From Streptomyces palmae (GTDB taxonomy: Bacteria > Actinomycetota > Actinomycetes > Streptomycetales > Streptomycetaceae): a stretch of DNA of 43,805 nt. How positions within the stretch are numbered: position 1 is the stretch's first letter; every line of letters begins with the position of its first letter. A program made the position numbers and the translations under genes. The notes beneath the pieces were generated by a model. The model did not search any database. It worked only from the letters and a program-made list of their open reading frames with translations, and was not told the origin of the DNA. This document shows positions 13,591 through 30,353 of the stretch, in pieces. The stretch spans positions 1 to 43,805 of the forward strand of contig NZ_SRID01000015.1 in assembly GCF_004684805.1 (NCBI RefSeq), in the 5' to 3' direction.

Positions 13591-13766
13591 CTTCAAGGCC
13601 CCCTGTTTCGCGGTACTGCTGGGTGTGCGTCATGCACGTGGCGGCCACCCTACCCAGGTCCGCGGCGCCGTACGTCGGTAGGATCGCCGTCTCGCGGAGG
13701 GAGGCCGTCGCCACGGGGGCGTCGGAGCGGACACATCCCTGTCGTGCGGAGGGGTTGAAGCATCCG
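13591..13766. promoter_or_regulatory. Divergent eccD/eccC promoter region
   Basis: Rightward, TAGGAT (13679-13684) is a classical Streptomyces -10 hexamer. Leftward, TAGGGT (plus-strand ACCCTA at 13647-13652) could serve eccD. The -35 regions are poor on both strands. GGAGGGG at 13748-13754 is the ribosome site of eccC. Confidence 0.45.
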
Positions 13767-16700
13767 GTGAGCCAGATCGTCGTCAAGCGCCCGCCGCGGG
13801 CGCTCCCGCCGGAGGTGCCCAGCGAGGAACTCGCCCTGCAGCCGCCACCGGAGCTGCCGAGGGGGCGTCAGGAGAGCGTCCTGATGCAGCTGCTGCCCAC
13901 GCTGGGCATGGGCTCCTCGATGGTCTACTTCTTCATGCCGGGCGCCGCTCCGATGATGAAGATCATGGGCGTCATGATGATGTTCTCGACGGTGGGCATG
14001 ACCATCGCGATGTTCATCCGGCACCGCCAGGGTTCGCAGGGGCAGATGGCGGACACCCGCCGCGACTATCTCAAGTACCTGGCGCAGACCCGCCGTACGG
14101 TCCGCAAGACCGCCCGGTTGCAGCGTGACGCGCAGTTCTATCTGAACCCCGCCCCCGACCAGCTGTGGGCCATCGTGGCCGAGGGCAGCCGGGTGTGGGA
14201 GCGGCGGACCACCGACGGGGACTTCGCACAGGCGCGCATCGGGCTGGGACTCCAGCAGTTGGCCACTCCCCTGGTGGCTCCGGAGACCGCTCCGGTGGAC
14301 GAGCTGGAGCCGCTCACCGCCGGGGCCATGCAGCGGTTCCTGGACACCCACGGCTCGTTGGACGGACTGCCGGTGGCGGTGTCGCTGCGCGCCTTCTACC
14401 ACGTGGCCATGGGGGGCGATCCGGAGACGGTGCGCGGTTCGGCCCGCGCCCTGGTGGCGCAGTTGGCGACCCTGCACTCGCCGGACGACCTGGTGCTCGC
14501 GGTGGTCACCGCGCGCGGCGGGACGGCGCAGTGGGAGTGGGCCAAGTGGCTGCCGCACGTACAGCGTCCGGAGGCGGTGGACGGGGCCGGCTACCGGCGT
14601 CTGATCGGCGATGACCTGACCGAGATCGAGGACCTGATCCGGCCGCTGGTGGACGGGCGTACGCGGTTCAGCCGCGACGCGCAGCCGCTGCTGGACCAGC
14701 CGCACGTGGTCGTGGTGCTGGACGGTGCGCTGGTGCCGCCGGACTCGATGTTCGCCGCCCCCGAGGGCCTCCAGGGCGTGACCCTGGTCGAGATCGTCCC
14801 CGGTGAGCTGGACGAGCTGCGCGGCGGCCTGTCCGTCCTGGTGGAACCCGGCAGGCTGCAGCTGCTGTCGCAGGTGGCCGGTTACGACGGGGTGCCCGAC
14901 GTGCTGTCCCTGGAGGCGGCCGAGGCGCTCGCCCGGCGGCTGGCGCCGCTGCGGCTGGGCGGCGGTGGCGATGACGACGAGCCGCTGCTGGCCAACCTGG
15001 AGTTCACCGATCTGCTGGGCCTGGGCGACGCCGGCTCGGTGGACGTGGCGCGCACCTGGCGGCCCCGGTCGCTGCCGGAGCGCCTGCGGGTGCCGATCGG
15101 TGTCGGGGAGAACGGCGCCCCGGTGATGCTGGACCTCAAGGAGGCGGCGCAGGACGGCATGGGCCCGCACGGGCTGTGCGTGGGCGCCACCGGTTCCGGA
15201 AAGTCGGAACTGCTGCGCACCCTGGTGCTGGGGCTCGCGGTCACCCACTCCTCGGAGACGCTCAACTTCGTCCTCGCGGACTTCAAGGGCGGCGCGACCT
15301 TCGCCGGCATGTCGGGGCTGCCGCACGTCGCGGCGGTCATCACCAACCTCGCCGACGACCTCACGCTGGTCGACCGCATGCGCGACTCGATCACCGGTGA
15401 ACTCCAGCGGCGGCAGGAGCTGCTGAAGTCGGCGGGCAACTACGCCAACATCCACGACTACGAGAAGGCGCGCGCGGCCGGTGCCCCGCTGGAGCCGGTC
15501 GCCTCGCTGGTGCTGGTGATCGACGAGTTCAGCGAGTTGCTGACCGCGAAGCCCGACTTCATCGACATGTTCATCCAGATCGGCCGCATCGGCCGGTCGC
15601 TGGGCGTGCATCTGCTGCTGGCCTCGCAGCGGCTGGAAGAGGGCCGGCTGCGCGGTCTGGAGACCTACCTCTCGTACCGCATCGGCCTGCGGACCTTCTC
15701 CGCCGCCGAGTCGCGCACCGCGCTGGGCGTGCCGGACGCGTACCACCTGCCCTCGGTCCCGGGCTCGGGCTATCTGAAGTTCGGCACCGACGAGATGGTG
15801 CGCTTCAAGGCCGCGTACGTCTCGGGGACCTACCGCACCGGGACCACCACCGACCTGGGCAGCGGGCCGCTGCCGATCGAGCGCCGGCCGGTGCTGTTCA
15901 CGGCGGCCCCGGTGCCGGTGACCTACACCGCGCCGGACCCGGAGGCGCTGCTGGCGGCGGTCCGTCCGGAGGACGACGCGCTGGCCGACACCGTGCTGGA
16001 CGTCATCGTCCGCCGGTTGGAGGGGCAGGGGCAGCCGGCCCACCAGGTGTGGCTGCCTCCGCTGAACGAGGCCCCGTCGCTGGACCAGATCCTCTCCCCG
16101 CTGGCGGTCTCCCCCGAACGCGGTCTGCATGTGGCCGGCTATGCGCGCAGCGGGGCGCTGGTGGTGCCGCTCGGCATCATCGACAAGCCCTTCGAGCAGC
16201 GCCGCGACATCCTCTACCGCGACTTCTCCGGCGCCGCCGGCCACATGCTGATCGTGGGTGGCCCGCGGTCCGGCAAGTCGACACTGCTGCGCACCCTGGT
16301 GAGTTCCTTCGCGCTCACCCACACCCCGTCCGAGGTGCAGTTCTACGGGCTGGACTTCGGTGGCGGCGGTATGAGCGCGATCTCCGACCTGCCGCACGTG
16401 GGCGGGGTGGCGTCCCGCCTGGACCCGGAGCGGGTGCGGCGTACGGTGGCCGAGGTCGCCGGCGTACTGGGGCGCCGCGAGGAGTACTTCCGCGCCCGCA
16501 ACATCGACTCCATCGACACCTACCGGCGGCAGCGGGCCGCCGGCGAGCACGCCGACCAGCAGTGGGGCGACGTCTTCCTGCTGATCGACGGCTGGGGCAA
16601 CTTCCGGCAGGACTACGACATCCTGGAAGGCATCGTCACCGACATCGCCGGGCGCGGTCTGGGGTACGGCGTCCATGTCGTCATCACCGCCTCCCGCAAC

Positions 16701-17723
16701 ATGGAGGTCCGGCCGGCCCTCAAGGACCAGCTGCTGGGCCGGCTGGAGCTGCGGCTCGCCGACGCGATGGACTCCGAGTTCGACCGCAAGGTCGCCGCGA
16801 ACGTGCCGGCCGGCGTGCCGGGCCGCGGCCAGCTCCCGGAGAAGCTGCACTTCATGGGCGCCCAGCCGCGCATCGACTCGGGCAGCAACCCGGAGACGAT
16901 GACCGAGGCGACCACCGAGATGGTTCGCGCGATCAACGAGGCGCTGGTCGGCCCGCCGGCGCCGCGGGTCCGGCTGCTGCCGCGCAAGCTGCGCGCCGAG
17001 GACCTGCCCAAGGGCTCGGAGTTCCGCCAGCAGGGCGTCGCCATCGGCATCGACGAGACCAACCTGGAACCGGTCTTCGTCGACTTCGAGACCGATCCGT
17101 TCTTCCTGATCTTCGGTGAGAGCGAATCGGGCAAGACCTCCCTCATCCGGCTGCTGGTCAAGCAGATCACCGAGCGGTACGGGCCGGAGGAGGCGAAGAT
17201 CGTCGTCGGCGACTACCGGCGCTCCCTGCTGGGCGTCATCCCGGACTCGCACCTGCTGGAGTACGCGCCGATCGCGCAGTCCCTGACAGTGCACACGGGG
17301 GCGCTCAACGCCCTGATGGAGCGGCGCGCTCCGCAGCCGGACATCACACCGCAGCAGCTGCGCGACCGCAGTTGGTGGTCCGGTCCGCGGTTCTTCGTCA
17401 TCATCGACGACTACGACCTGGTCTCCACCAGCAGCGGCAATCCGCTCGCGGTGCTGACCGAGAGCCTGCCCTTCGCCCGCGATGTGGGCGTGCGTTTCAT
17501 CATCGCCCGGAACTCCGCCGGTGCCTCGCGGTCGATGTTCGAGACCTTCATGCAGCGCATCAAGGAGCTGGGCGCCCAGGGTGTGGTGCTCTCCGGCGAC
17601 CCCAGCGAGGGCGATCTGCTCGGCGGCGTCCGGCCCCGCCCGATGCCCCAGGGCCGCGGCTTCTTCGTCTCCCGCAGGCGGGGCGCTCCGCTGGTCCAGC
17701 TGGGGTGGCTGCCGGAGCAGTAG
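13767..17723 (+). CDS. eccC: Type VII secretion ATPase EccC (single-chain)
   Basis: EccC is the FtsK/SpoIIIE-type motor that recognises and drives ESX substrates. The 1318-aa protein joins what some mycobacterial systems split as EccCa and EccCb. Two transmembrane segments lie at about residues 45-85. Three nucleotide-binding domains follow with Walker A motifs GATGSGKS (about 473-480), GGPRSGKS (about 831-838) and GESESGKT (about 1117-1124), and Walker B motifs VLVIDEF, FLLIDGW and FVIIDDY. The GTG at 13767 follows GGAGGGG; earlier in-frame starts lie in the promoter region. A perfect terminator follows the stop. Confidence 0.97.
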   Translation: MSQIVVKRPPRALPPEVPSEELALQPPPELPRGRQESVLMQLLPTLGMGSSMVYFFMPGAAPMMKIMGVMMMFSTVGMTIAMFIRHRQGSQGQMADTRRDYLKYLAQTRRTVRKTARLQRDAQFYLNPAPDQLWAIVAEGSRVWERRTTDGDFAQARIGLGLQQLATPLVAPETAPVDELEPLTAGAMQRFLDTHGSLDGLPVAVSLRAFYHVAMGGDPETVRGSARALVAQLATLHSPDDLVLAVVTARGGTAQWEWAKWLPHVQRPEAVDGAGYRRLIGDDLTEIEDLIRPLVDGRTRFSRDAQPLLDQPHVVVVLDGALVPPDSMFAAPEGLQGVTLVEIVPGELDELRGGLSVLVEPGRLQLLSQVAGYDGVPDVLSLEAAEALARRLAPLRLGGGGDDDEPLLANLEFTDLLGLGDAGSVDVARTWRPRSLPERLRVPIGVGENGAPVMLDLKEAAQDGMGPHGLCVGATGSGKSELLRTLVLGLAVTHSSETLNFVLADFKGGATFAGMSGLPHVAAVITNLADDLTLVDRMRDSITGELQRRQELLKSAGNYANIHDYEKARAAGAPLEPVASLVLVIDEFSELLTAKPDFIDMFIQIGRIGRSLGVHLLLASQRLEEGRLRGLETYLSYRIGLRTFSAAESRTALGVPDAYHLPSVPGSGYLKFGTDEMVRFKAAYVSGTYRTGTTTDLGSGPLPIERRPVLFTAAPVPVTYTAPDPEALLAAVRPEDDALADTVLDVIVRRLEGQGQPAHQVWLPPLNEAPSLDQILSPLAVSPERGLHVAGYARSGALVVPLGIIDKPFEQRRDILYRDFSGAAGHMLIVGGPRSGKSTLLRTLVSSFALTHTPSEVQFYGLDFGGGGMSAISDLPHVGGVASRLDPERVRRTVAEVAGVLGRREEYFRARNIDSIDTYRRQRAAGEHADQQWGDVFLLIDGWGNFRQDYDILEGIVTDIAGRGLGYGVHVVITASRNMEVRPALKDQLLGRLELRLADAMDSEFDRKVAANVPAGVPGRGQLPEKLHFMGAQPRIDSGSNPETMTEATTEMVRAINEALVGPPAPRVRLLPRKLRAEDLPKGSEFRQQGVAIGIDETNLEPVFVDFETDPFFLIFGESESGKTSLIRLLVKQITERYGPEEAKIVVGDYRRSLLGVIPDSHLLEYAPIAQSLTVHTGALNALMERRAPQPDITPQQLRDRSWWSGPRFFVIIDDYDLVSTSSGNPLAVLTESLPFARDVGVRFIIARNSAGASRSMFETFMQRIKELGAQGVVLSGDPSEGDLLGGVRPRPMPQGRGFFVSRRRGAPLVQLGWLPEQ

Positions 17724-17738
17724 AGCCGCGCCGGAACC

Positions 17739-17788
17739 CCGGAGCCGTACGGTCCGCGATCAACCCGCCACGGACCGTACGGCTCCGG
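17739..17788 (+). terminator. Terminator of eccC
   Basis: A perfect 18-bp stem, CCGGAGCCGTACGGTCCG (17739-17756) with its complement at 17771-17788, closes a 14-nt loop 16 nt after the eccC stop. It separates eccC from the two downstream ESX-like genes, which therefore need their own promoter. Confidence 0.85.
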
Positions 17789-17893
17789 CGTATCCCCGTA
17801 CGCCCCAGGTCAGGGCCACTCTCCCGGCTTGTCCCGGCCCGCGTAACAGGTCTGTCATCGCCCCTTCGCAAGGTCGCACAGCAGTGCGCCTCC

Positions 17894-17968: not shown

Positions 17969-18430
17969 GTGACATTCGAGGATGAGTGGGGAAAGCTGCG
18001 TTCCGATGCCGCGCAGCGCCTGGCCGGAGGTACCCAGCTGGACCGCGTTCCGGACGACCCGCCCGGCGGCGGCTCGACCGACCTGTCTTCCTCTCCAGCC
18101 CGCAAGGCCGCCGCGGTGACGGCCCTGACCGAGCATGTGCGGCCGGACGTCTCGGACGGCGGCAAGGCGCCGCACGAGACCACCACGGCGGCGGGCACGG
18201 ACTTCAAGGACTGGGCCACCGGCAAGGCCATCACGGAGATGCTCACCGCGTGGGAGACGTCCGTCTCCGTCCTGCAGTCCCGTCTGGGCGCCGAGTCGGA
18301 GTCGTTCAACGGCACCAAGAAGCTGTTCACGACCAATGACAACAAGCAGTGGAACCAGTTCACCCTGCTGAACCCGCCGAACACCACAGTGCCGTACGGG
18401 CCCGGCCTGTCGGACTACAACCTTCACTGA
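17969..18430 (+). CDS. Conserved small ESX-locus protein, likely partner of the downstream WxG protein
   Basis: The product is about 153 aa, acidic, Gly/Pro/Ser-rich in the first third and helical in the middle (KDWATGKAITEMLTAWETSV). No WxG or YxxxD motif is clear, and I do not recognise a family. The GTG at 17969 has GGGGG 6 nt upstream; a GTG seven codons earlier has a poorer site. It lies 9 bp before the 722-aa WxG protein and is certainly cotranscribed, which suggests a chaperone or heterodimer partner role. Confidence 0.7.
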   Translation: MTFEDEWGKLRSDAAQRLAGGTQLDRVPDDPPGGGSTDLSSSPARKAAAVTALTEHVRPDVSDGGKAPHETTTAAGTDFKDWATGKAITEMLTAWETSVSVLQSRLGAESESFNGTKKLFTTNDNKQWNQFTLLNPPNTTVPYGPGLSDYNLH

Positions 18431-18439
18431 GGGAGAGCC

Positions 18440-20608
18440 GTGCTCACCTACCAGCAGGTCATGGACGCCAACCTCCCCGCGCTCACCACTGCGGCGAAGG
18501 AGTGGGACAACGCGGCGAAGAAGTTCGACAGCGCCAAGACCACCTATGACGCCCAGGTCAAAAGCGTCACCACGGACGGTTTCTGGACCGGCGAGGCGAA
18601 CCTGTTCGCCCAGCCCCAGACCAACGTCAGCTCTCAGCAGCTCCAGGCCGCCGCGCACGAGGCGCGGGCCATCGCCTCCCTGCTGCGGGACGCGCACACG
18701 CAGCTCACGGAGTTGGTGAAAAAGGTGAAGGCCGCGGTGGCCGACGCCCAGGACGCCAACATGAAGGTCAACGAGTACGGCGTGTGCAGTTGGAACGGCG
18801 ATCCCGGCGCCCGCAACGACCCTGAGCTCCCCGGCATCGTGGCGAAGTGGACCGCGCACATCGACGACGCCGTACGCGCCGTCGACGATGCCGACCAGGG
18901 CGTCAAGCTCGCCCTGACGGCGGCCGTGAAGAGCCCCGACCCCACGCTGCCCCACGGTTTCAACGGCAAGGCGGTCGACGACATCGAGAAGGTCGAGGCC
19001 CAGCGCGCCTCCGATCTGAAGACCAAGCTCGACAACGGCAAGCTCACGCCCGAGGAACTCGCCGAGATGCAGCGGCTGTTCCGGGACAACAAGGGCGACC
19101 AGGCGTTCACCCAGACCTTCCTGACCAGTGTCGGCCCCCAGGGCACGCTGGAGTTCAACAAGCACCTGCGCGACCTGATGGGCGACGACAAGAACAACAA
19201 GGACGCCTACCAGTACCTCCGCGACTCGCTGGCCACCACGCTGGCCACCGCCACCCAGGACACCAAGTCGCCGTTCTACGACACCTGGCGCAAGGGCCTG
19301 CGCGAAGCGGGCGTGAAGAACTTCGCCGACAAGGGCGATCAGACCGCCCTGCGCGGCTACCAGCTGCTGGTCGACCTGATGGGTCAGGGCAAGGGCTACA
19401 ACAAGCAGTTCCTCTCCGACCTCGGCGACGACATGATCGCGGCGGAGAAGAAGAAGGACGACCTCTGGCTCAAGTGGGGCAACGGCCACCCCGACTACGT
19501 CCAGGACCCGGTGGACGGCCTGCTCGCCATCATGAGCAAGCAGCCCGACGCCGCCACCTACTTCCTGGACGCCGGCGCGGACGGCAAGGCCAACGACCAC
19601 CTGCGGTACCTGCTCAACGACCGCAAGTGGCCCAAGGAGTTCACCACCACCCCGTACGGGATGTACGAGAGCGGCAAACCGCTCTACGACTTCTTCGGCA
19701 GGGCGGGGCTGGGGGCCGCCATGGAGGCGGCGGCCACCGGCGAGATACCGGGCACCAAGCACGAGGTGGGCGGGCACACCGAGGCCCAGGCCCGGGTCAT
19801 GCGGGACACCATCAACGTGCTCAACGAGCAGAAGCACCCCGACAAGCTGCACGCCCAGCTCCGCGGCCCGCTGGGCAACATGCTCGCCGACTACACCGCG
19901 GACACGCACCACATCCTCGCCCGCGACTTCACCGACTACAACAAGTGGAACAACACCAACGGCCAGGTGTGGACCGACGAGAACGGCACCCACATGGCGG
20001 TGGACAAGTTCAAGCTCGCCAAGATCATGCGCGGGGTGGCCGACGACCCCGCGGCCTTCGCCACCATGTACGGCGCCGAGCGCCAGTACGCGGCCAACGT
20101 CATGGGCATCACGGACTTCAACAACAAGGAGGCGCGCGCCGCCGTCATCGGGGAGGCATCCTCCGCTCTCGGCTTCTACGACGGCGTCCGGGCCGATGTG
20201 ATCCTGGACAAGCGCGACGCGGCGGTCCAGTGGGCCACCGACGTCCGCCACCATGTCACCACCTCCTCCGGCGTCCTGCTCAACTTCATCCCGGGCGAGG
20301 TCGCGCCCGGAGTGGACATGCCCAAGGGCGTCAAGGTGGGCGCCGACGTGCTCAACCGCCTGGTCGACTTCGCCATGTACGACTGGGCCAACGGCCAGAT
20401 AGCCGAGGCGAAGTACGAGGGGGGCGAGGACAACGCCAAGACCTTCCTCAGCGGGCAGAAGGAGGTCGACCTGATGGCCACCGAGTGGGCCAAGAAGAAC
20501 GGTGTCAGCGAGTCCGACGACTACGCCCTGCGGAACCTGCTCCAAGCGGCCCACGGGGAGCACATAGACGCCCGCGACGAGGTGTTCGTGGCCGTGCGCC
20601 GCGAGTAG
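18440..20608 (+). CDS. Large WxG-containing protein, putative type VII substrate
   Basis: The product is 722 aa. The N-terminal ~110 residues form an ESX-like helical hairpin with WTG at 49-51. The long remainder is hydrophilic and helical with many Asp/Lys residues and no transmembrane segments or signal peptide. This layout (WxG hairpin plus large C-terminal domain) resembles LXG-type or other large ESX substrates. I think it belongs to a family listed in Streptomyces as DUF6571, but I am not sure. No toxin active site is recognisable and no obvious immunity gene follows. The GTG start has GAGGGAGAG upstream. A secreted effector or structural role is inference. Confidence 0.75.
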   Translation: MLTYQQVMDANLPALTTAAKEWDNAAKKFDSAKTTYDAQVKSVTTDGFWTGEANLFAQPQTNVSSQQLQAAAHEARAIASLLRDAHTQLTELVKKVKAAVADAQDANMKVNEYGVCSWNGDPGARNDPELPGIVAKWTAHIDDAVRAVDDADQGVKLALTAAVKSPDPTLPHGFNGKAVDDIEKVEAQRASDLKTKLDNGKLTPEELAEMQRLFRDNKGDQAFTQTFLTSVGPQGTLEFNKHLRDLMGDDKNNKDAYQYLRDSLATTLATATQDTKSPFYDTWRKGLREAGVKNFADKGDQTALRGYQLLVDLMGQGKGYNKQFLSDLGDDMIAAEKKKDDLWLKWGNGHPDYVQDPVDGLLAIMSKQPDAATYFLDAGADGKANDHLRYLLNDRKWPKEFTTTPYGMYESGKPLYDFFGRAGLGAAMEAAATGEIPGTKHEVGGHTEAQARVMRDTINVLNEQKHPDKLHAQLRGPLGNMLADYTADTHHILARDFTDYNKWNNTNGQVWTDENGTHMAVDKFKLAKIMRGVADDPAAFATMYGAERQYAANVMGITDFNNKEARAAVIGEASSALGFYDGVRADVILDKRDAAVQWATDVRHHVTTSSGVLLNFIPGEVAPGVDMPKGVKVGADVLNRLVDFAMYDWANGQIAEAKYEGGEDNAKTFLSGQKEVDLMATEWAKKNGVSESDDYALRNLLQAAHGEHIDARDEVFVAVRRE

Positions 20609-20629
20609 TCCCACCGGCACGACCCCGCC

Positions 20630-21450
20630 CTGTGGGCAATGCCCGCCGACGCCGGTTCGCCGTCGGATCCGTGGCTGCCGCGGGCTTGCCGGTGGCCGCC
20701 GGTGAAGTCTTCCACTTCACCGGCGGCCACGACTTCTGGCGCGACACCGCCTCCTTCCGCGACGCCTGCCAGGGGCTGCTCGACCGGGCGCCGCGCTCGG
20801 CCCTGTCCAGTGCCGCCGTCCGCGCCCAGGCCGGTGACGACCTCTCCTCCCGTCGAACACGGCCGAGGCGGGTCACCTCACGCACTGCGAGGTGAAGGAC
20901 CGCCATGGCGAGGACGTCGTTCACGGCGGACATTTACTGGGCGTCGAAGCCCCCCGAGCCGGATGCCATCCGGCAGCGGGATCTCTGTGCCGCGGAAAGC
21001 CCCACCGCCCCGGACACCATCGCCGAGGGCTGCTACCTTGCCGAGCCCGAAGGCGGCGACCCGAAGGGCGACCCCGTCTTGCGGCTCACCGCCCTGTACG
21101 GAAGCTACGCCGGACAAGCGCGGCGCGGCTCACACACCTTCCCGGGCGGGACCGAGGACGCGGGCCAGGACGACCGGGACACCTGGCGAGCCCGAATGCC
21201 CTGGCGCCCCGCGCGGGCTCCACACCATCACCACCGTGCCGCACGCGGAACCGAAGGCCCCGGGCGAGGTGCGGAAGTTCGAGCGTGCCGCCGTGAACGC
21301 GTTTGCCGAGCAGTCGGCGCGAGGCGGCACGGATGCGGCACCCTGCGGACGCCCTGACGGCGCCGGCGCCGCCACCCCGGTAGTCCTCACGAAGGCGGAC
21401 GGGTCCCCTGCGGCCTCAGCCGCCTTCTCTCGCATCCGGCCCCGCGGCAG
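20630..21450 (+). pseudogene. Frameshifted remnant of a membrane-anchored protein
   Basis: Pieces of one protein are spread over three frames. 20630-20850 gives a basic start, a transmembrane segment (FAVGSVAAAGLPVAAG) and FTGGHDFWRDTASFRDAC. 20868-20930 in the next frame gives HCEVKDRHGEDVV. 20925-21145 in the first frame gives IYWASKPPEP and LRLTALYGSYAGQ. 21210-21450 in the third frame gives LHTITTVPHAEPKAPGEVRK and FERAAVNAFAEQSARG. The order and spacing match a typical Streptomyces protein with one membrane segment and conserved cysteines, broken by at least three frameshifts. Sequencing error is possible but would need to recur. Confidence 0.5.
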
Positions 21451-21544
21451 AGCCGATCACCTGGCGCACGCTGTCCGGCCAGTCCATTGGGGACAACGGG
21501 ATCCGCCTCCCCCCTCCCCCGCTCCCGCTCCGTCCGGGAACGCC

Positions 21545-21586
21545 GATGGGGGTGTGCGGTCCCCGCAGGGACCACCCACCCCCATC
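21545..21586 (-). terminator. Terminator of esxB-esxA
   Basis: A 19-bp stem with two mismatches (21545-21563 against 21568-21586) and a 4-nt loop lies 29 nt after the esxA stop. Being symmetric, it could also stop transcripts from the pseudogene side. Confidence 0.75.
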
Positions 21587-21615
21587 ACATCTGGCGACCG
21601 GTGACGGCAACCGGC

Positions 21616-22011: not shown

Positions 22012-22407
22012 TCAGTACGAGTTGATCTTGCTGCCGGCCTCGAGGCCCGAGTGCAGCCCGGTCCCCGTGCTGCCGGGCGCGAGGTGACCGCCCGCGGCGG
22101 CACCGTTGACGTCGATGCTGCGGAACTGCGACAGGATGTCGTCGTCGTTCGCGCGGCTGGACTTGCGGGTGAGGGCCACGGCGTCGTGGATGCCGTCGAT
22201 CAGCCGACGCAGCGCGTCGTGGTCATCGTTCAGGGCCCGCTGCGCGGTGACGAACGCGCTCGCACCACCACCGGTCCAGACACCCTGCACCGTGGCAATG
22301 GCGTCCGCGAGCTTCTTCAGGTTCGTGGACAGCTGGGTGCTGGTCTCCTGAATGCTGCCCTCGAACGCGATGAATGCTGCATCGCTAATCTTCTGAGTGT
22401 CCGACAT
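22012..22407 (-). CDS. esxB: WXG100 protein EsxB-like
   Basis: The 131-aa product has the two-helix WXG100 fold with WTG at 44-46 and a longer, Gly/Ser-rich C-terminal tail without YxxxD. The partner EsxA carries that motif, as usual for ESX heterodimers where one member holds the export signal. The ATG at 22407 has GGAAGGTGG 4 nt upstream; an upstream in-frame GTG would add 23 basic residues and is unlikely. It is the first gene of the esxBA operon. Confidence 0.88.
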   Translation of the reverse strand: MSDTQKISDAAFIAFEGSIQETSTQLSTNLKKLADAIATVQGVWTGGGASAFVTAQRALNDDHDALRRLIDGIHDAVALTRKSSRANDDDILSQFRSIDVNGAAAGGHLAPGSTGTGLHSGLEAGSKINSY

Positions 22408-22512
22408 GTTCCACCTTCCCCGTTGAAATTTCGACCGGCCGGACCGAGGTTTCTCCCCTCGGCCTCTCACCGTCACTGACCGCGAATCCGACTTGCGGAC
22501 TCACGCTTCTGG

Positions 22513-22611: not shown

Positions 22612-23868
22612 TCATAGGGCCCTGCCTCGCCGTCGAACGAAGAGGACACCGCCCACCACCGCGGCCAGCGTCGCGGCACCTGCCCCGACCCCGATCCACA
22701 GGCCGCTACCCTCACCATCCCCGCCCGAACCGGACTTCGCTTCGGCCTTGTCACCGCTGGGCGCCTCGGCCGGCTTCGCCGACTTCGACGCCTTCTCCTT
22801 CGCCTCGGCACTCGGTGACGGAGACGCACCGACCGAAGGATTCGGTTCCGTCGCACCCTCCCGAGCGAGAAGCGGATTCACATCCGGGGGGCCAGGGTTG
22901 CCTTTGCCTTCCAAGAGAGGCAAGCGCGGGCGGACATTACCGTAGCCAATGTATCGGCTCGGCACGATACCGTCTGGCGTACCAGCGGTCTGCATCATTA
23001 CACGCAGAACCTGATGGTTCGTCCAATTTGGATGCTTTGCCCAGATGAGGGCGGCAGAGCCGGAAGCAATGGCAGTGGCTTGGCTCGTACCACCGGAATT
23101 ACACCTTCCCGTGAGCTCGGGACATCGCCACGGAATGTCGTCACCGGGGGCCGCCAATGCGACCTGCTCTCCATTGCCGGAATAGCTGGCGACCTTGAGA
23201 GAGCGATCCACGGCAGACACCCCAACAACGCCCGGCAGCGCCGCAGGATAGACAACCGGATTACCCTTCTTTCCACCATTTCCCACGCTGGCAAAAACGA
23301 GGCTACCTTTCGCCAATGCCTCATTCACAGCCTTCTGCGTCTTCCTGTAATAGAACTCCTCACCTTCGGCACCGAGCGAGATATTGATGATCTTGGCGCC
23401 GCGCGAGACAGCGTAGCGAATACCACGCGATACGACCCCGTCGACGGAGTCCTCGGGCGGATGCGTAACCGCCTTTACAGGAAGAATTTTCGCCTCAGGG
23501 GCGATTCCCTGGATCCCGCCCCCAGCTCCCGTACCGGCAATGAGAGCAGCCATGTTGGTGCCGTGATTATCTTTGTCTCGCATCGAACCGGTAGGGGCGT
23601 TGGACACTTCCTTGCCCGGAAGTACCCTGCCCCGCAGTTCCGGGACCTCACTTATGCCGCTGTCGAGGACTGCCACGGTGACGCCTCGGCCCTTGCTTAC
23701 CTTCCAGATCTCAGGCATGCGCAGGCTGTCGAGATACCACTGGTGGGAGCGGAAATCATCGGCCCCGGCTTCGGGCGCGACCCCACTCATCATCAGGAGC
23801 GTGCCACCGAGAACCGCTGCAGCTCTCCTCACGCCTCGTTGCCTGAAGTGAAGATGCCCTCGAAGCAT
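22612..23868 (-). CDS. Mycosin-type subtilisin protease of cassette B
   Basis: This 418-aa S8 peptidase is a mycosin: signal-like segment (about 13-35), catalytic Asp69 (VAVLDSGI), His102 (NHGTNMA), oxyanion Asn197 and Ser262 (GGTSQATA), then a Pro/Ser/Ala/Lys linker and a C-terminal transmembrane helix (about 392-412). All catalytic residues are present. It lacks the long Pro/Lys loop of the main MycP. It follows the Pro-rich WxG protein of its cassette by 43 bp. Its middle part uses more A/T-ending codons than the ecc genes. A dedicated role with the cassette substrates is inference. Confidence 0.88.
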   Translation of the reverse strand: MLRGHLHFRQRGVRRAAAVLGGTLLMMSGVAPEAGADDFRSHQWYLDSLRMPEIWKVSKGRGVTVAVLDSGISEVPELRGRVLPGKEVSNAPTGSMRDKDNHGTNMAALIAGTGAGGGIQGIAPEAKILPVKAVTHPPEDSVDGVVSRGIRYAVSRGAKIINISLGAEGEEFYYRKTQKAVNEALAKGSLVFASVGNGGKKGNPVVYPAALPGVVGVSAVDRSLKVASYSGNGEQVALAAPGDDIPWRCPELTGRCNSGGTSQATAIASGSAALIWAKHPNWTNHQVLRVMMQTAGTPDGIVPSRYIGYGNVRPRLPLLEGKGNPGPPDVNPLLAREGATEPNPSVGASPSPSAEAKEKASKSAKPAEAPSGDKAEAKSGSGGDGEGSGLWIGVGAGAATLAAVVGGVLFVRRRGRAL

Positions 23869-23911: not shown

Positions 23912-25858
23912 CTAACCGATGACCGGCGGGGTGGCGTTCTTGCCCCCACCCACATGGGCGCTTCCCTCGGCCGTCTGTTCCCCGAGTCCAGCCGTCGTGC
24001 GCGCTCCGTTCCCGCGCACCAGCCCGGAGCCGCCCGTCGTGAACTCGGACCGCCCTTCTCGTGGAGGGTGGTACCCGGCAACCGTCCCACCCGGCTCAAC
24101 AGCCAGACGTCGTCCGGAGGTGCTGCGCACCGTTGCAGGTGCAGCGGTCCGTCCATTGGCGCCCGCGGGCCCGTGAGTCACGCCTTTCGTTTCCTCGCCG
24201 ATCACCGTTCCTCGGGGGAGACGCTGGCCGGCGGCAGGACCGGCCGTGCGCGGGTTGCCAATGACCATCCCCGATTCCGACGCCAGCCTCCGACCCGCGG
24301 TAGGAGTCCTCGACGAGCCATCGGCCGGACGGTGACCGCCCGTCGTCCCCACGGGGCCCACAGGTCCGCGGCCGGCGTGGTTCTCCTCTCCAAAGACTGC
24401 GCCCTGGGGCAGTCGGGTGGGGTTCAGCTGCCCCGACGCCCGGTTCGGGTTGCGCTGACCCCCGCTTACCCCATCAGTTGATGGTTGAGCCAACGACTGG
24501 GCGCGTGGCGGAGGAAGAGAACCTACTCGTTCACCAACGGCCGGAGCGCGTGGCGGCAGGCCGTTAGAGGTCGCCGGCGGCGTGCCGGGAATCGGAGCGC
24601 CGGGCCGTGCAGGCGGCACCCTGGGAGCGGGATTGACGGGCCCGGGCGAGCCAGGCCCCGAACGCGCCGGCCCAGGGGTGAACGGGGCAGGCCGCATTGG
24701 CCCGGGTACACCAGGATTCGACCGAGGGGGTGGCATCATCGGCCCCGGCCTCGAAGGCCCGGGCAGACCAGGGCCCGAACGTGCCGGCCCCGGCGGCATC
24801 GCGCCCGGCCTCATCGGGCCAGGGAGCCCCGGATTCGACCGAGTGGGCCCTGGCGGCATCGGGCCGGGACCCGACTTGGCGGGGCTAGGCCCGATGGGTC
24901 CTGGCCTGGCCGGTCCGGTGGGCGGCCCGCCACTGGGCTTGATCGGGCTTGGCAATCTGTTGACAGGGGGAATGGGTGCCGGTGGCGTGACCGGCACTGG
25001 CGATGGACGCCCAGGATCAGGGAGTCCGGGACCAGTCGGCCGCGTCGGCGTCTCCGGGGCAGGGGGAAGGGTGGCTGTCGAGTCGATGTTCGTTCCCGTG
25101 GCCTGTCCCGGGTTCGCCGGGCTGCCGGAGTGGCTGCTGGGCGGATCCAGCGCAGGAACAGGCGGAAGCGACTCGACGTCGCCATGGGGGGTCTTCACCC
25201 CGTCGGTGTAATGAACCTGCGCGCTGGGGAGCGTAGAACGGGGCGCCGGAGCGGAAACCGCGAAATTTCGCACGCCGGGCGTGACAGTTCCCGAACTCGA
25301 ACCCGACCCCGTCGGCGTCACATAACTGTCGGACGCCTGCGTCACGACATCAGGAGCCTTGGGAAATCTCGGTTCTTCGAGCTTGTCGAGCCATGTCGAC
25401 TGAGCCACATTGTAGTAGGACTCGATCTTACGCAGGGCTGCGCGGGCCGCGTTGTCTCGCAGAGTCTGCGTCTTGTCGATCTGCTCCTGCGTCAGAGGAG
25501 TGCCCGGCCCAGGCATTTCTCCCTTGCCTTCCGCAAGACCGAACTTGGCGTGGTCCAGCGCTGAATGCACCATCTCGGCGTACTTGGCAAGTGCGACGGT
25601 CTGCTTGCCCATCGCTTCGACCCAGTCCTTGAAGGACTGGGCACCCTCGCCCTCCCACTGCACGTTGTCAGCGTGCTCAATGAGCTCCTCGCCGATGCCG
25701 CCAATGACGGTGTGCGCCCCCTCGAGTGCCTTCAGCAGGCCGTCAAACTTCTCCGGTGTCGCAGACTCGATCATGGCGTTGAGCTGTTTGTAGTTCAGAC
25801 CTTCGAAGTTTTGACCTCCGCTCGCGCAGGCCGGCGGTGTCTTGACGCCCTCTCCCAT
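23912..25858 (-). CDS. PPE-like WxG protein with long Pro-rich repeat tail (cassette B)
   Basis: The product is 648 aa. An N-terminal helical domain of about 180 residues contains WEG at 68-70 (VQWEGEGAQSFKDWV), as in WXG100/PPE proteins. A ~300-residue Pro/Gly/Arg-rich region follows, with repeated PGPMRPG/PGPARSGPG units. The C-terminus has two copies of a repeat starting RLPxG...GEE and ending RRLAxE. There is no signal peptide. The ATG has GGGAGGGGGAGAG upstream and follows the YxxxD partner gene by 18 bp. The layout suggests a heterodimer exported by the ESX system, with the tail reaching the cell wall. Confidence 0.8.
   Translation of the reverse strand: MGEGVKTPPACASGGQNFEGLNYKQLNAMIESATPEKFDGLLKALEGAHTVIGGIGEELIEHADNVQWEGEGAQSFKDWVEAMGKQTVALAKYAEMVHSALDHAKFGLAEGKGEMPGPGTPLTQEQIDKTQTLRDNAARAALRKIESYYNVAQSTWLDKLEEPRFPKAPDVVTQASDSYVTPTGSGSSSGTVTPGVRNFAVSAPAPRSTLPSAQVHYTDGVKTPHGDVESLPPVPALDPPSSHSGSPANPGQATGTNIDSTATLPPAPETPTRPTGPGLPDPGRPSPVPVTPPAPIPPVNRLPSPIKPSGGPPTGPARPGPIGPSPAKSGPGPMPPGPTRSNPGLPGPMRPGAMPPGPARSGPGLPGPSRPGPMMPPPRSNPGVPGPMRPAPFTPGPARSGPGSPGPVNPAPRVPPARPGAPIPGTPPATSNGLPPRAPAVGERVGSLPPPRAQSLAQPSTDGVSGGQRNPNRASGQLNPTRLPQGAVFGEENHAGRGPVGPVGTTGGHRPADGSSRTPTAGRRLASESGMVIGNPRTAGPAAGQRLPRGTVIGEETKGVTHGPAGANGRTAAPATVRSTSGRRLAVEPGGTVAGYHPPREGRSEFTTGGSGLVRGNGARTTAGLGEQTAEGSAHVGGGKNATPPVIG
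24630..24890 (-). repeat. Pro/Gly-rich coding repeats of the cassette B WxG protein
   Basis: This stretch encodes about five degenerate 18-20-residue units built from PGPxRPGxMPPGPxRSxPGxP. The DNA repeats GGGCCCGGG-like blocks, prone to slippage. The cassette A paralogue has a much shorter version, so copy number differs between paralogues. Confidence 0.6.
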
Positions 25859-25876
25859 ATCTCTCCCCCCTCCCGC

Positions 25877-26362
25877 TCATTCCTTGCCGTCGGTGTCGTT
25901 ACCCGTCGCTGGGCTCTCGCCTGACTTACCCTGATCACTCGGGCTGCAGATCGGGTTGTCGGGCGTCACGGCAGCAGGATTGTCACGATGTCCCTGGTAA
26001 TATCTTTCGGCCCGTTCCTGAATCGCTTTGAGCCGAGCGGACTGCTCTGCGTCCACGCCCTCGTAGTTGTTCTCAGCGATCACGGCAGCGATGCCCAGTG
26101 CTTCGATCTGATCGCCCAAGATCTGGGAGAGCTCGGATAGGCGTGCGTGCGCCTTCTCCACATGACCAGCCAGAATGCCGGCGGCATTGAAGGAACTACT
26201 ACCAAAGGCGGTCGTCGGAACGCCGTGACTATCGAGATTCTTCTTGGCGCCCGGTGAATCGGCGAACTTCAAGAGCACGTCGTCGATGCGACTCTTGAAG
26301 CCCTTGAGGGTCTTGACCTCCTTGGCGAAGCCCTTCCCGAACTGTGTCTTCCCGTCCCCCAC
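25877..26362 (-). CDS. PE-like helical protein with YxxxD motif (cassette B)
   Basis: The product is 161 aa, mostly helical up to about residue 125, with a disordered Pro/Ser/Asp tail. YEGVD at 100-104 matches the YxxxD export signal and sits just after a long helix (HARLSELSQILGDQIEALGI). It has no WxG. It is homologous to the cassette A protein at 29877-30353 (shared LSQxLGDxIEAxGIAAxIAE). The start codon lies inside the duplicated 178-bp segment with GGGGAGGG upstream. By position and motif it should pair with the WxG protein encoded 18 bp downstream. I know no family name. Confidence 0.75.
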   Translation of the reverse strand: MGDGKTQFGKGFAKEVKTLKGFKSRIDDVLLKFADSPGAKKNLDSHGVPTTAFGSSSFNAAGILAGHVEKAHARLSELSQILGDQIEALGIAAVIAENNYEGVDAEQSARLKAIQERAERYYQGHRDNPAAVTPDNPICSPSDQGKSGESPATGNDTDGKE

Positions 26363-28062: not shown

Positions 28063-29862
28063 TTATTGGATGGTGGGCGGAATGGTGTTCCTCTCACCGC
28101 CGTCACCCACTTTCCCCTCGCCCTCCGACGCCTGACAACGCGAAAGAGCGTCGTTCCCTCGCGTGAGCCCTGTACCACCCGGTGTGAATTCAGCCCTCCC
28201 GCCACGCGGGGTACGAAGCCCACCTGTCACCCCGCCAGGTTCCGAGCTCAGGCGTCTCCCCACTGTGGCGTCAGGGGATGCCTTCGGACCAGAACCGATA
28301 ACGTTCGCCCCAGGCGTGGCCGCGCTGCGCGGCGAAGTCGCTGGCTCTTCGCCCACCACGGTTCCCTGAGGAAGGCGCGGTTGGGACACCGGCGCAGCAC
28401 TGGATGGAGCACCGAATACATGGCGCGGTTCTGAAGACAGCCGCCCAGCAGTCGCATGGGGACCCTGACCAGGAGGACGGACACCAGGAGTGTGCTGCAT
28501 GGGCCCCACAGGACCCCGCCCCGGACCAGCCACAGGCCGTTCCTCGCCGAACGCTCTCCCTTGAGGAAGACGCTGATCGGATACCGGCCCGGTGTCCCGC
28601 GGAGCCCCGATGGTGCGGCGGGGTTCCGATACCAGCCGCCTGGCAGCCATATTGGGGCTCTGGCCGGGAGGACGGACACCAGGAGCATGCTGCATGGGCC
28701 CCATAGGACCTCGCCCCGGACCAGCCACAGGCCGCTCTTCACCAACCACCCTCCCTTGCGGGATTCGCGGTGTGGCAGGTTGTCCGTTCGGCCGGGCACG
28801 CTGAGGCCCGTAGATTCCATCGCTTGGGCTGACCCGAGGAGGGTTCATCCCTGTTCGCGGCGGAAGCGCAGGGCCTTGAGGGCTTCCCACGACAGGCCCC
28901 TGACTCGGCCCGCTGGGCCTGTTGGTCGGCATGCCGGGCAGAGGGGTGCCGGGCCTCATCGGCCCAGGCTCACCAGGACGCTTGGCGGGACCGGAGCCAG
29001 GCGCGGTCGGCAAGGGTCCAACCGGACCAACTGGGACTGGCGCCTGGGGCACACGTGAGGTATCAGGCAGCCCCGGAGGCATCGGCCTGGTCTCTGTGGG
29101 TGGTGCCGGCGGAAGCGTGACTGTGGAGTCGAGGTCGGTTCCCCTGGCCTGCTCGGGCGCAGAGGGAACGCTGCCTACATGACCAGGCGTGCCGGGGTCG
29201 AACGGGGGAATGTCGTCCATTTGTGGAAGGCTGACAGATCCTGCGTGGGCAGGATTTCCACTTGGACCGGCAGTGGGGGTTACGGCATGAGAAACGATGG
29301 TCGGTGCTGCCAGACCTGAGTTGGTGCCGCCACCAGAAGATGTAGAACTACCGTACGATTGCTCGCCGCCTGCGATTGAATTCCCGATTTCCGGCAGCGG
29401 AGGGAAGTTCGGCTCCTTGAGTTTGGCGATATCTCCCTGTGCAGTGGCATAGGAGGAACTAACCGTCTCGAGAGCAGCGATTGCTTGCTGGTTCCCTCCT
29501 GGCTTCGTCCGTTTCGCGTCCTCTTCCGGGTCGACCATGCACAGGGCTGGTGGCATTTGAGACTTACCTTTTGCCAGCCCGTCTCCGGCCACACCCAGTG
29601 CATTGCACACACCGGTCGTATATTCGGCTAGGACCAGAGTCTGCTTAGCCATCTCTCCGACCCACCCACGAAATGCTTCAGCGCCTTGCCCTTCCCAACG
29701 GGCTTTGTCGGCATGGGCTTTCATTTCTTCGCTGATGCTCTGGATGTCGCCGGCCGCTAGAGTCAGTGCGGCACAGGCGGCAACGATTGATCCTGGGTCT
29801 GCCCCCGCAATCATCTCGTAGAGTTTTTCGTGGGACATCTGGTCGAACTGACCGTCTCCCAT
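28063..29862 (-). CDS. PPE-like WxG protein with 65-residue C-terminal repeats (cassette A)
   Basis: The product is 599 aa. The N-terminal helical domain contains WEG at 56-58 (ARWEGQGAEAFRGWV). A Pro/Ser/Gly linker follows (about 170-360). From residue 366 a 65-residue unit occurs twice almost unchanged and a third time in diverged form, ending in a tail shared with the cassette B paralogue (GRxEFTxGGxGLxRGN). There is no signal peptide or membrane segment. GAGGGGAGGG precedes the ATG. The gene lies 14 bp after its YxxxD partner and 28 bp before its mycosin. Export as a pair is inference from motifs and order. Confidence 0.8.
   Translation of the reverse strand: MGDGQFDQMSHEKLYEMIAGADPGSIVAACAALTLAAGDIQSISEEMKAHADKARWEGQGAEAFRGWVGEMAKQTLVLAEYTTGVCNALGVAGDGLAKGKSQMPPALCMVDPEEDAKRTKPGGNQQAIAALETVSSSYATAQGDIAKLKEPNFPPLPEIGNSIAGGEQSYGSSTSSGGGTNSGLAAPTIVSHAVTPTAGPSGNPAHAGSVSLPQMDDIPPFDPGTPGHVGSVPSAPEQARGTDLDSTVTLPPAPPTETRPMPPGLPDTSRVPQAPVPVGPVGPLPTAPGSGPAKRPGEPGPMRPGTPLPGMPTNRPSGPSQGPVVGSPQGPALPPRTGMNPPRVSPSDGIYGPQRARPNGQPATPRIPQGRVVGEERPVAGPGRGPMGPMQHAPGVRPPGQSPNMAARRLVSEPRRTIGAPRDTGPVSDQRLPQGRAFGEERPVAGPGRGPVGPMQHTPGVRPPGQGPHATAGRLSSEPRHVFGAPSSAAPVSQPRLPQGTVVGEEPATSPRSAATPGANVIGSGPKASPDATVGRRLSSEPGGVTGGLRTPRGGRAEFTPGGTGLTRGNDALSRCQASEGEGKVGDGGERNTIPPTIQ
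28195..28767 (-). repeat. 195-bp coding tandem repeat
   Basis: Units at 28573-28767 and 28378-28572 are close copies with 195-bp period; 28195-28377 is a diverged, shortened third unit. Each encodes R[IL]PQGxxxGEE near the start and a GRLxSEP-like block near residue 44. The high similarity of the first two units indicates a recent duplication inside the gene. Confidence 0.8.
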
Positions 29863-29876
29863 TTTTCCCTCCCCTC

Positions 29877-30353
29877 TCAGAGTTGGCTGCCGCCGGAGTT
29901 GTTGCCGCTACCCTTGCCTCGCTCAGGGGAATCCTGCCCGTGACTGTTTCCCTCGTCCTCGGGCTTGCGGTAGTGCTCCCGGGCGCGCTTCTCAAGTTCG
30001 CGAAGTCGCGCAGCCAGGTCGTCGTCGATGGAGTCGTAGCCCCGCTCGGCGATCTTGGCGGCAATGCCCATGGCCTCGATCCGGTCACCCAGGAACTGAG
30101 ACAATTCCTCCAGGCGCAGGCGCACCTTGTCGTAGTGCTCGGCCATGCTCTTTGCCGCGGCGAAGTCCTTGCCGTACGCATGCTGTGGAATCGTCTGATG
30201 GCTGATGTTCTTCTTTGACGCCGCAGACTCCTGAAGCGCCGTCAGGACCGTATCGATACGCCCCTTGAACTTACTCAGCGTCTCGGCTTCCTTGACCAGG
30301 CTGCTTCCGAAAGTGGGTGGCGTAGAACCTGCGTCGTCTTTCGGCTGCCCCAC
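29877..30353 (-). CDS. PE-like helical protein with YxxxD motif (cassette A)
   Basis: The product is 158 aa, helical to about residue 130, with a hydrophilic Ser/Gly/Asn tail. YDSID at 106-110 fits YxxxD and follows the helix LEELSQFLGDRIEAMGIAAK. It is a paralogue of the protein at 25877-26362. The GTG start has GGGAGGG 6 nt upstream and lies within the second copy of the 178-bp repeat. The WxG partner begins 14 bp after its stop. No family name is known to me. Confidence 0.75.
   Translation of the reverse strand: MGQPKDDAGSTPPTFGSSLVKEAETLSKFKGRIDTVLTALQESAASKKNISHQTIPQHAYGKDFAAAKSMAEHYDKVRLRLEELSQFLGDRIEAMGIAAKIAERGYDSIDDDLAARLRELEKRAREHYRKPEDEGNSHGQDSPERGKGSGNNSGGSQL

What the first reader, a model, noticed from the sequence alone, without database searches (positions are those of the whole stretch)
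17969..20608. A 722-residue WxG protein with its small partner behind eccC
The large protein has a WxG hairpin followed by about 600 residues of unknown, soluble sequence. It is coupled to a small gene and has its own promoter after the eccC terminator. The layout is that of a large ESX effector with a chaperone-like partner, yet no toxin motif or immunity gene is apparent, so a structural or developmental role is also possible.
Basis: partly seen in the sequence, partly recalled or inferred. Interest (0 to 1): 0.55.

Follow-up and report, generated by a model that had tools for sequence, protein, structure and literature searches.

The report
Secreted effector cassette beside Streptomyces eccC
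The two genes look like a secreted, weapon-type protein and the small helper that takes it to the type VII secretion machine; most long relatives in Streptomyces are followed by a third gene for a membrane-anchored protein that probably protects the producer, and in this genome that third gene is broken.

Summary
In detail: a 153-aa gene (17969-18430) and a 722-aa gene (18440-20608), 9 nt apart, follow a strong hairpin behind eccC. The 722-aa protein's WTG sits in the turn of a predicted helical hairpin. "Chaperone-like" needs changing: the small protein's family has a conserved Trp and, 29 residues later in 72 of 72 homologues, a phi-xxx-D/E motif near the end of a hairpin, as in PE and Lap1 targeting partners.

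The pair belongs to a multicopy Streptomyces family. Members occur in 101 of 139 genomes with EccC over cut-off and 1 of 11 below it; that one lacks the hairpin. The hairpin carries several unrelated C-termini, one an alpha/beta-hydrolase. In 73 of 82 long members a membrane- or lipid-anchored gene family follows. The small partner co-varies with the hairpin, the third gene with the C-terminal half.

Best reading: a polymorphic T7SS effector with its targeting partner and a probable immunity protein. In the window the third gene is decayed while the effector is intact, which speaks against a strict immunity role unless something else protects. Secretion and toxicity are untested. New variant of a known kind.

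The parts
13623..17723 (+). eccC, the T7SS ATPase (EccCa + EccCb); the true start may lie inside this ORF
   Evidence: TIGR03924 947.6 bits and TIGR03925 890 bits
17739..17789 (+). long G+C-rich hairpin behind eccC, terminator-like without a T-run
   Evidence: -47.2 kcal/mol for 17725-17800, 0 of 200 shuffles as low
17969..18430 (+). small partner, 153 aa: N-terminal helix 3-19, disordered 20-42, helical hairpin 43-78/83-134
   Evidence: family HMM hit just upstream of 76 of 95 large-gene N-domains
18326..18340 (+). F120-xxx-D124, export-arm-like motif of the small partner
   Evidence: D/E 29 residues after the conserved Trp in 72 of 72 homologues of 90 aa or more
18440..20608 (+). large protein, 722 aa, effector candidate; weak member of Pfam DUF6571
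   Evidence: DUF6571 29.6 bits against a cut-off of 27, not listed by hmmscan
18440..18964 (+). WxG helical-hairpin targeting region, residues 1-175
   Evidence: model; co-varies with the small partner
18584..18592 (+). W49-T50-G51 in the hairpin turn
19565..20605 (+). C-terminal half, residues 376-722: co-varies with the third gene; residues 422-714 are what membrane-anchored third genes of some relatives copy
20611..21357 (+). decayed third gene: remnant of a single-TM extracytoplasmic protein (family TMb), broken by frame changes and lacking its middle
   Evidence: TMb profile matches in three different frames, E 1.8e-12, 5.5e-8 and 1.3e-4; 8.2e-9 and 2.0e-5; intact in S. lilacinus L041
21616..21924 (-). 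WXG100 protein (WDG; YKHTD)
   Evidence: TIGR03930 58.8 bits, over cut-off; motifs
22012..22476 (-). second WXG100-like gene (WTG)
   Evidence: PF06013 31 bits, over the Pfam cut-off of 27.3
25877..26362 (-). small gene of a second small/large pair (YEGVD)
23912..25858 (-). large gene of that pair, WEG hairpin region and Pro-rich tail
29877..30353 (-). small gene of a third small/large pair (YDSID)
28063..29862 (-). large gene of that pair (WEG)

Best explanation
The two genes are the first two of a three-gene cassette: small targeting partner, effector, and an envelope-anchored cognate partner. The 153-aa protein pairs with the N-terminal hairpin of the 722-aa protein (inferred from the PE-PPE and LXG-Lap systems and from co-variation). 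The complex shows EccC a two-part signal, WxG on the large and F/L-xxx-D on the small protein, and is exported by the ESX machine next door (inferred; EccC dependence is supported only by co-occurrence). Outside, the C-terminal half (about residues 376-722) of the effector acts on the envelope of neighbouring cells (inferred). In most relatives a TM- or lipid-anchored extracytoplasmic protein encoded just downstream co-varies with that half and is most likely the immunity protein (inferred). In the window this third gene is decayed while the effector stays intact. Shown by computation: the pair, the motifs, the predicted hairpins, the module boundaries, the co-variation, the co-occurrence with EccC and the decay. 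Not shown: binding, export, toxicity, immunity.
For: Small family member just upstream of 76 of 95 N-domains. phi-xxx-D/E 29 residues after a Trp in 72 of 72 partners of 90 aa or more, 2 fragments dropped before. WxG in the hairpin turn (49 of 52 W, 52 of 52 G). In 150 genomes of the genus, family members in 101 of 139 with EccCa over cut-off and 1 of 11 below it (Fisher p 4.6e-5); the exception has no hairpin. Eight C-terminal clusters on one N-domain, two of them short remnants, one cluster an alpha/beta-hydrolase (PF06259, 4e-35 for L092). Anchored third-gene family behind 73 of 82 long genes, the decayed window copy counted; LpqN-like gene behind 12 of 13 Gly/Ala-type ones and 0 of 87 DUF6571-like ones. 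Third-gene type needs 7 changes on the C-terminal tree and 21 on the N-terminal one (by block 21, 18, 7, 6). Partial rank correlation: small partner with hairpin 0.885, with C-terminus 0.069; third gene with C-terminus 0.534, with hairpin -0.022. At 40-75% C-half identity 74 of 132 locus pairs share the third gene, but 7 of 132 the next genes downstream and 5 of 132 those upstream.
Against: No enzymatic or toxin family in the 722-aa protein and no significant fold match. P0002 has no membrane-like stretch (peak hydropathy 0.78). The presumed immunity gene is decayed in the window beside an intact effector, which a strict toxin-immunity pair should not tolerate unless another gene protects; an intact relative exists at G000:C263 with no effector found within the 15 kb fetched. 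Physical adjacency alone makes the small gene follow the N-terminus and the third gene the C-terminus. 19 of 95 N-domain hits had no small gene found in place, 9 of 82 long genes no anchored family (several of these 9 have other lipoproteins), 1 of 13 Gly/Ala-type no LpqN-like gene. The DUF6571-like C-terminus is one broad family (91 of 113), not a wide array of toxins. The N tree rests on fewer columns than the whole-C tree, and the equal-sized block 200-375 also needs 18 changes.
Confidence: 0.6

Rival explanations
1. Developmental or structural role: the pair is exported by the ESX system and works at the hyphal surface in aerial growth or sporulation; the anchored third protein is its surface receptor or dock.
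For: The Streptomyces ESX system is linked to sporulation and development in S. coelicolor and S. scabies (as cited in PMC8401907, passages). No toxin motif. The effector outlives its decayed third gene in the window. The C-terminus is one broad alpha-helical family in 91 of 113 cases.
Against: Patchy and multicopy: 102 of 150 genomes of the genus, 7 further genes in the window's genome. A developmental part would hardly have its C-terminus exchanged for a hydrolase or a Gly/Ala domain with a different third gene, or move between genomic sites as a unit.
Confidence: 0.2
2. Kin-recognition or self-assembly rather than killing: the exported C-terminal half meets its anchored partner (in some relatives an anchored copy of itself) on sister hyphae and signals identity.
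For: Membrane-anchored copies of residues 422-714 form the third gene in 12 of 72 labelled long cassettes. Strong diversification with co-variation. No toxic motif.
Against: Most third genes are not copies of the effector (60 of 72 labelled). The same cassette format also carries an alpha/beta-hydrolase with a lipoprotein behind it.
Confidence: 0.1
3. One reading: cytoplasmic chaperone plus effector, the small protein staying inside.
For: Gene order and coupling; the AlphaFold2 fold of the small protein has no significant PDB match. [quoted passage not shown]
Against: Hairpin with a phi-xxx-D/E motif at the export-arm position in 72 of 72 homologues tested, which a plain chaperone does not need.
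Confidence: 0.1

Closest known systems
PE-PPE heterodimers of mycobacterial ESX systems (and EspB)
   Same: Small gene first, large gene second; helical hairpin with WxG on the large partner and a phi-xxx-D motif near the end of helix 2 on the small one; gene beside eccC.
   Different: No PE or PPE N-terminal motif; P0002 scores 12.3 bits for Pfam PPE (cut-off 26); F or L mostly replaces Y in the small partner's motif; the small partner has an N-terminal helix and a disordered linker before the hairpin; the C-terminus is a large helical body followed by an anchored third gene.
LXG effectors with Lap1/Lap2 targeting partners (T7SSb, Bacillota)
   Same: Constant N-terminal domain, variable C-terminus, small helical partner with an FxxxD-type motif, gene for a cognate protein downstream (PMC9600955, passages).
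   Different: Actinobacterial T7SSa; one small partner seen, not two; no LXG, DUF3130 or DUF3958 family listed in the Pfam scans; different sequence families.
TspA/TsaI of Staphylococcus aureus
   Same: T7SS effector whose immunity protein sits in the membrane because the toxin acts from outside the cytoplasm (PMC7456083, abstract and passages).
   Different: TsaI is a polytopic DUF443 protein; here the third gene has a single N-terminal TM or lipobox and an extracytoplasmic domain. No hydrophobic toxin segment in P0002.
T7SS-linked exported alarmone synthetases of Streptomyces (cluster B) and AaEAS of Amycolatopsis
   Same: T7SS-targeted polymorphic effectors of Actinomycetota with a targeting factor upstream and a putative immunity gene downstream (PMC12691689, passages).
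   Different: That C-terminus is a SYNTH enzyme; here it is a DUF6571-like helical body. Whether their N-domains are related to this one was not tested.

Membership tests
T7SS (ESX) substrate pair, WxG + YxxxD/E type | WxG in the turn of an N-terminal helix-turn-helix of one partner | tested here: met
   model; 49 of 52 W, 52 of 52 G
T7SS (ESX) substrate pair, WxG + YxxxD/E type | YxxxD/E after helix 2 of a hairpin partner | tested here: inconclusive
   D/E in 72 of 72, but position -4 is L 39, F 27, H 4, M 1, Q 1 and never Y; the Lap1 FxxxD precedent makes it plausible
T7SS (ESX) substrate pair, WxG + YxxxD/E type | Export depends on EccC | tested here: inconclusive
   co-occurrence only: 101 of 139 against 1 of 11 genomes; export not testable here
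PE/PPE families | Pfam PPE profile over cut-off; PE/PPE N-terminal motifs | tested here: not met
   12.3 bits against 26; N-termini MTFEDEW and MLTYQQV
LXG/Lap (T7SSb) system | LXG, DUF3130 or DUF3958 profile match | tested here: not met
   none listed in the Pfam scans of 23 large (E up to 0.01) and 47 small proteins (E up to 0.05)
Pfam DUF6571 (PF20211) | score over the curated cut-off of 27 bits | tested here: met
   29.6 bits over profile 269-580; but hmmscan listed no match for P0002 at E up to 0.01 or 1; 7 of 23 relatives matched
Polymorphic effector-immunity system | Constant trafficking domain with exchanged C-terminal domains | tested here: met
   8 C-terminal clusters among 113 proteins, two of the eight being short remnants
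Polymorphic effector-immunity system | Cognate downstream gene that co-varies with the C-terminus | tested here: met
   for the family; in the window itself the gene is decayed
Polymorphic effector-immunity system | C-terminus toxic, downstream protein protects | not testable with these tools
   needs experiment

The most novel reading that the evidence does not exclude
Streptomyces ESX systems export a genus-wide arsenal of PE/Lap1-paired polymorphic effectors whose diversifying C-terminal half is neutralised outside the cell by an anchored partner, in some cassettes by a membrane-tethered copy of the effector's own C-terminal half. That would be immunity, or kin recognition, by a tethered self-copy, and would give the supposedly developmental Streptomyces ESX a role in competition between colonies.
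Probability: 0.3. Interest if true: 0.82.

Novelty: new variant of a known kind. Interest (0 to 1): 0.6.

Why it matters
The Streptomyces ESX system is known mainly for its link to sporulation. A multicopy family of paired, modular effectors with co-varying anchored partners would give it a second purpose, supply candidate substrates, put a function on DUF6571, and show the two-part WxG + phi-xxx-D signal as a general format for large T7SS cargo in Actinomycetota. A third gene that is a tethered copy of the effector's own C-terminus would be an unusual form of immunity or recognition. The window's genome, with an intact effector and a decayed third gene, is a natural test of whether the third gene is needed.

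Tried and rejected
Fold searches led nowhere: P0002 has no PDB match with Foldseek E <= 0.001 (best 1.5e-3, TM 0.14, long helical proteins), a best VIA Z of 7.9, within the tool's stated background for helical models, and no viral match at E <= 0.001. P0001 had Foldseek matches only at E 9.2 and a best VIA Z of 3.3. ESX folds absent from these lists are not thereby excluded. Sequence and profile searches of the PDB gave nothing convincing.

A pore-forming reading from the hydrophobic segment between the last long helices was dropped for P0002: 8 of 23 relatives in alignment A1 reach hydropathy 1.6 there, but P0002 reaches 0.78 and 0 of the 52 rows of A5 reach 1.6.

A sigma-70-like promoter before the small gene was not found. 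Kinship of the small partner with the window's other small genes is not supported (family HMM E 0.22 and 0.98); the large N-domain hits the window's WXG100 gene and one PPE-like gene only weakly (E 3.3e-4 and 3.8e-4 in an 8-sequence set).

The module split could follow from adjacency alone; one search was run as a control for that and favours a unit of three genes, but it is no proof.
Full report
What is there. The window is a Streptomyces T7SS (ESX) locus: eccC (TIGR03924/TIGR03925), eccD, two WXG100-type genes and mycosin-like proteases (the name mycosin for 22612-23868 rests on 261 bits for TIGR03921, below its cut-off of 278.75). The genus is inferred from the named records and from contig NZ_BNBD01000028.1 of S. 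mashuensis (36,649 bases), which has the length of contig C28 of G035, listed as same genus. Behind eccC comes a strong hairpin, then a 153-aa and a 722-aa gene, 9 nt apart. No sigma-70-like promoter was found between.

The large protein. No Pfam or NCBIfam family passes its cut-off with hmmscan. In the whole-genome search the DUF6571 profile scores 29.6 bits over a cut-off of 27, and 7 of 23 relatives match DUF6571, 5 PPE and 6 WXG100 at E up to 0.01. AlphaFold2 with 52 sequences gives mean pLDDT 84.4 and pTM 0.81: helix 13-45, W49-T-G51 in the loop, helix 52-105, then a mostly helical body and long C-terminal helices with a low-confidence stretch 608-638. Of 52 relatives 49 keep W and 52 keep G. 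Fold searches found no significant match.

The small protein. No family passes. Its model (mean pLDDT 76.1, pTM 0.42) has a short N-terminal helix, a disordered linker and a hairpin 43-78/83-134. In the 80 loci, 76 of 95 N-domain hits have a member of its family ending -60 to 400 nt upstream; 19 do not. Of 74 small proteins extracted, two fragments under 90 aa were dropped; all 72 others have D or E exactly 29 residues after a Trp, preceded at -4 by L 39, F 27, H 4, M 1 or Q 1. [quoted passage not shown] The test takes the last Trp with D/E at that spacing; in the alignment of 47 the Trp is invariant and the acidic residue D in 46 and E in 1. [quoted passage not shown]

The same format nearby. 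The window holds two more small/large pairs in the same order on the other strand: 25877-26362 (YEGVD) with 23912-25858 (WEG), and 29877-30353 (YDSID) with 28063-29862 (WEG).

Distribution. The window's genome has seven further genes with a match to P0002 and 11 places matching the small family, the window's included. In 150 genomes of the genus, 102 have the family and 139 have EccCa over cut-off. Of the 139, 101 have the family; of the 11 below cut-off, one does (Fisher p 4.6e-5), and its match covers query residues 186-656 with no trace of the hairpin domain. The 11 were read from the E-values; all 150 genomes had some weaker EccC-profile match. Across 246 genomes of the phylum, 6 have the family, all in the window's genus (1 of 170 genera); among 61 relatives 2 of 14 genera had matches. 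Only 12 of 80 loci have eccC within the fetched flanks, so most copies do not sit beside the machine.

Exchanged C-termini. Behind the N-domain, 113 of 115 distinct proteins have a C-terminus over 40 aa; BLAST groups them into 8 clusters: 91 DUF6571-like, 13 Gly/Ala-rich, 3 with an alpha/beta-hydrolase (PF06259, E 4.3e-35 in L092, the one tested), 2 and four single ones, of which two are short remnants.

The third gene. Of 82 long members with downstream sequence, 73 have a gene of four families (TMa, TMb, TMcopy, Lipo) within 1.8 kb, 70 starting within 200 nt; the decayed window copy is counted among them. The families have a single N-terminal TM segment (22 of 24 TMa, 18 of 20 TMb, 13 of 14 TMcopy) or, for Lipo, a lipobox-like motif in 8 of 16 as extracted. 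TMa and TMb are related (hhalign 97.8%), both more remotely to Lipo (92-93%). TMcopy is a tethered copy of the effector's own C-terminus: E 3.5e-39 to P0002, best stretch 422-608, profile-profile 99.9%. Several of the 9 long members without these families have other lipoproteins behind them. With a cruder, family-free test, 57 of 80 called downstream ORFs (95 regions) look TM- or lipid-anchored at the N-terminus, against 110 of 775 background ORFs of the same loci. The Gly/Ala type instead has an LpqN-like, apparently soluble gene (12 of 13; 0 of 87 in the DUF6571-like cluster).

Which part goes with which. On 86 long proteins, third-gene type (72 labelled; the window labelled by its decayed gene) needs 7 changes on the tree of residues 200-end and 21 on the tree of the hairpin. 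Equal blocks give 21 (1-175), 18 (200-375), 7 (376-550) and 6 (546-720), so the boundary lies near residue 375 and not right behind the hairpin. Partial rank correlations of identity: small partner with hairpin 0.885 (0 of 300 permutations), with C-terminus 0.069 (50 of 300); third gene with C-terminus 0.534 (0 of 300), with hairpin -0.022 (198 of 300). Adjacency alone could produce this. As a control, in 44 loci with both flanks, pairs of 40-75% C-half identity share a third gene in 74 of 132, the next genes downstream in 7 of 132 and those upstream in 5 of 132: the three genes travel as a unit and the unit ends at the third gene.

The window's copy is incomplete. Behind the 722-aa gene, TMb profile pieces lie in different frames (20611-20892, E 1.8e-12, profile 10-77; 20896-21354, E 5.5e-8, profile 246-370; a piece of the frame 20609-21601, E 1.3e-4), with most of profile 95-245 unmatched. 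Missing middle plus frame changes point to a real pseudogene rather than a single sequencing error. The closest relative, S. lilacinus L041 (53% identity), has this gene open, 358 aa. The window's genome has an intact TMb relative elsewhere (C263:17748-18827, E 5.3e-46), next to a weaker one, with no effector or small-partner hit within the 15 kb fetched. Either this protects, or the third gene is not essential, or the effector is no longer expressed.

How it probably works, and how sure. Export as a WxG/phi-xxx-D pair by the neighbouring ESX machine: about 0.85, inferred. A polymorphic effector used against neighbouring cells with the third protein as immunity: about 0.6. A developmental or surface-structural role: about 0.2. 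Target and chemistry of the C-terminal half are unknown; the anchored, extracytoplasmic place of the third protein suggests an envelope target.

Compared with the literature. The paper library holds no paper with the word DUF6571. Searches on Streptomyces type VII secretion and effectors (listings only, open-access papers only) showed no title or abstract start describing this family. The nearest report is of exported alarmone synthetases: Streptomyces cluster B homologues lie beside T7SS and putative immunity genes, and AaEAS has a targeting factor upstream and a putative immunity gene downstream (PMC12691689, passages). Streptomyces ESX is described as developmental in two species (PMC8401907, passages; the original papers were not read). 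TspA/TsaI gives the precedent for a membrane-bound immunity protein against a T7SS toxin acting from outside the cytoplasm (PMC7456083, abstract and passages). EspG as a cytoplasmic chaperone is recalled.

Verdict. Real, well-formed and more interesting than the two genes alone suggest; a new variant of a known kind (T7SS polymorphic effectors with targeting partners), in a lineage where such effectors are little described.

Noticed in passing
L062, L065, L069, L073, L055, L056 and others, directly behind the large gene: The third gene is a membrane-anchored copy of the effector's own C-terminal half (family TMcopy, 12 of 72 labelled long cassettes).
   Followed up: partly
G000:C263:16489-18827 (L125 7412-9846): Two tandem genes of the third-gene family TMb, one strong and one weak match, beside a gene that reads like 6-phosphofructokinase (by eye), without any effector or small-partner hit in the 15 kb fetched.
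   Followed up: partly
window 23912-26362 and 28063-30353, minus strand: Two paralogous small/large pairs (43% and 37% identical) with YxxxD on the small and WEG on the large partner and long Pro-rich tails; PPE/EspB-like in layout.
   Followed up: partly
L092 3487-5328, L088 7576-9501, L096 13447-15336: The same N-domain carries another C-terminus, an alpha/beta-hydrolase (PF06259, tested in L092); the first downstream ORF of L092 and L088 begins like a lipoprotein.
   Followed up: partly
L006, L031, L032, L035, L108-L115: Gly/Ala-rich C-termini of about 225-245 aa with an LpqN-like gene behind (12 of 13 in the cluster) and often a second conserved small gene.
   Followed up: partly
G000:C113:11045-13078: A second EccCa over cut-off (862 bits) in the window's genome, in a 995-aa open frame.
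   Followed up: no
L029 (G010:C2:2582444-2583898): A DUF6571-like body without the WxG hairpin, in a genome whose best EccC match is below cut-off.
   Followed up: partly
L017-L021, L023, L026, L036: These eight distant relatives have a strongly hydrophobic segment (hydropathy 1.8-2.2) between the last long helices, which could insert into a membrane; P0002 lacks it.
   Followed up: partly
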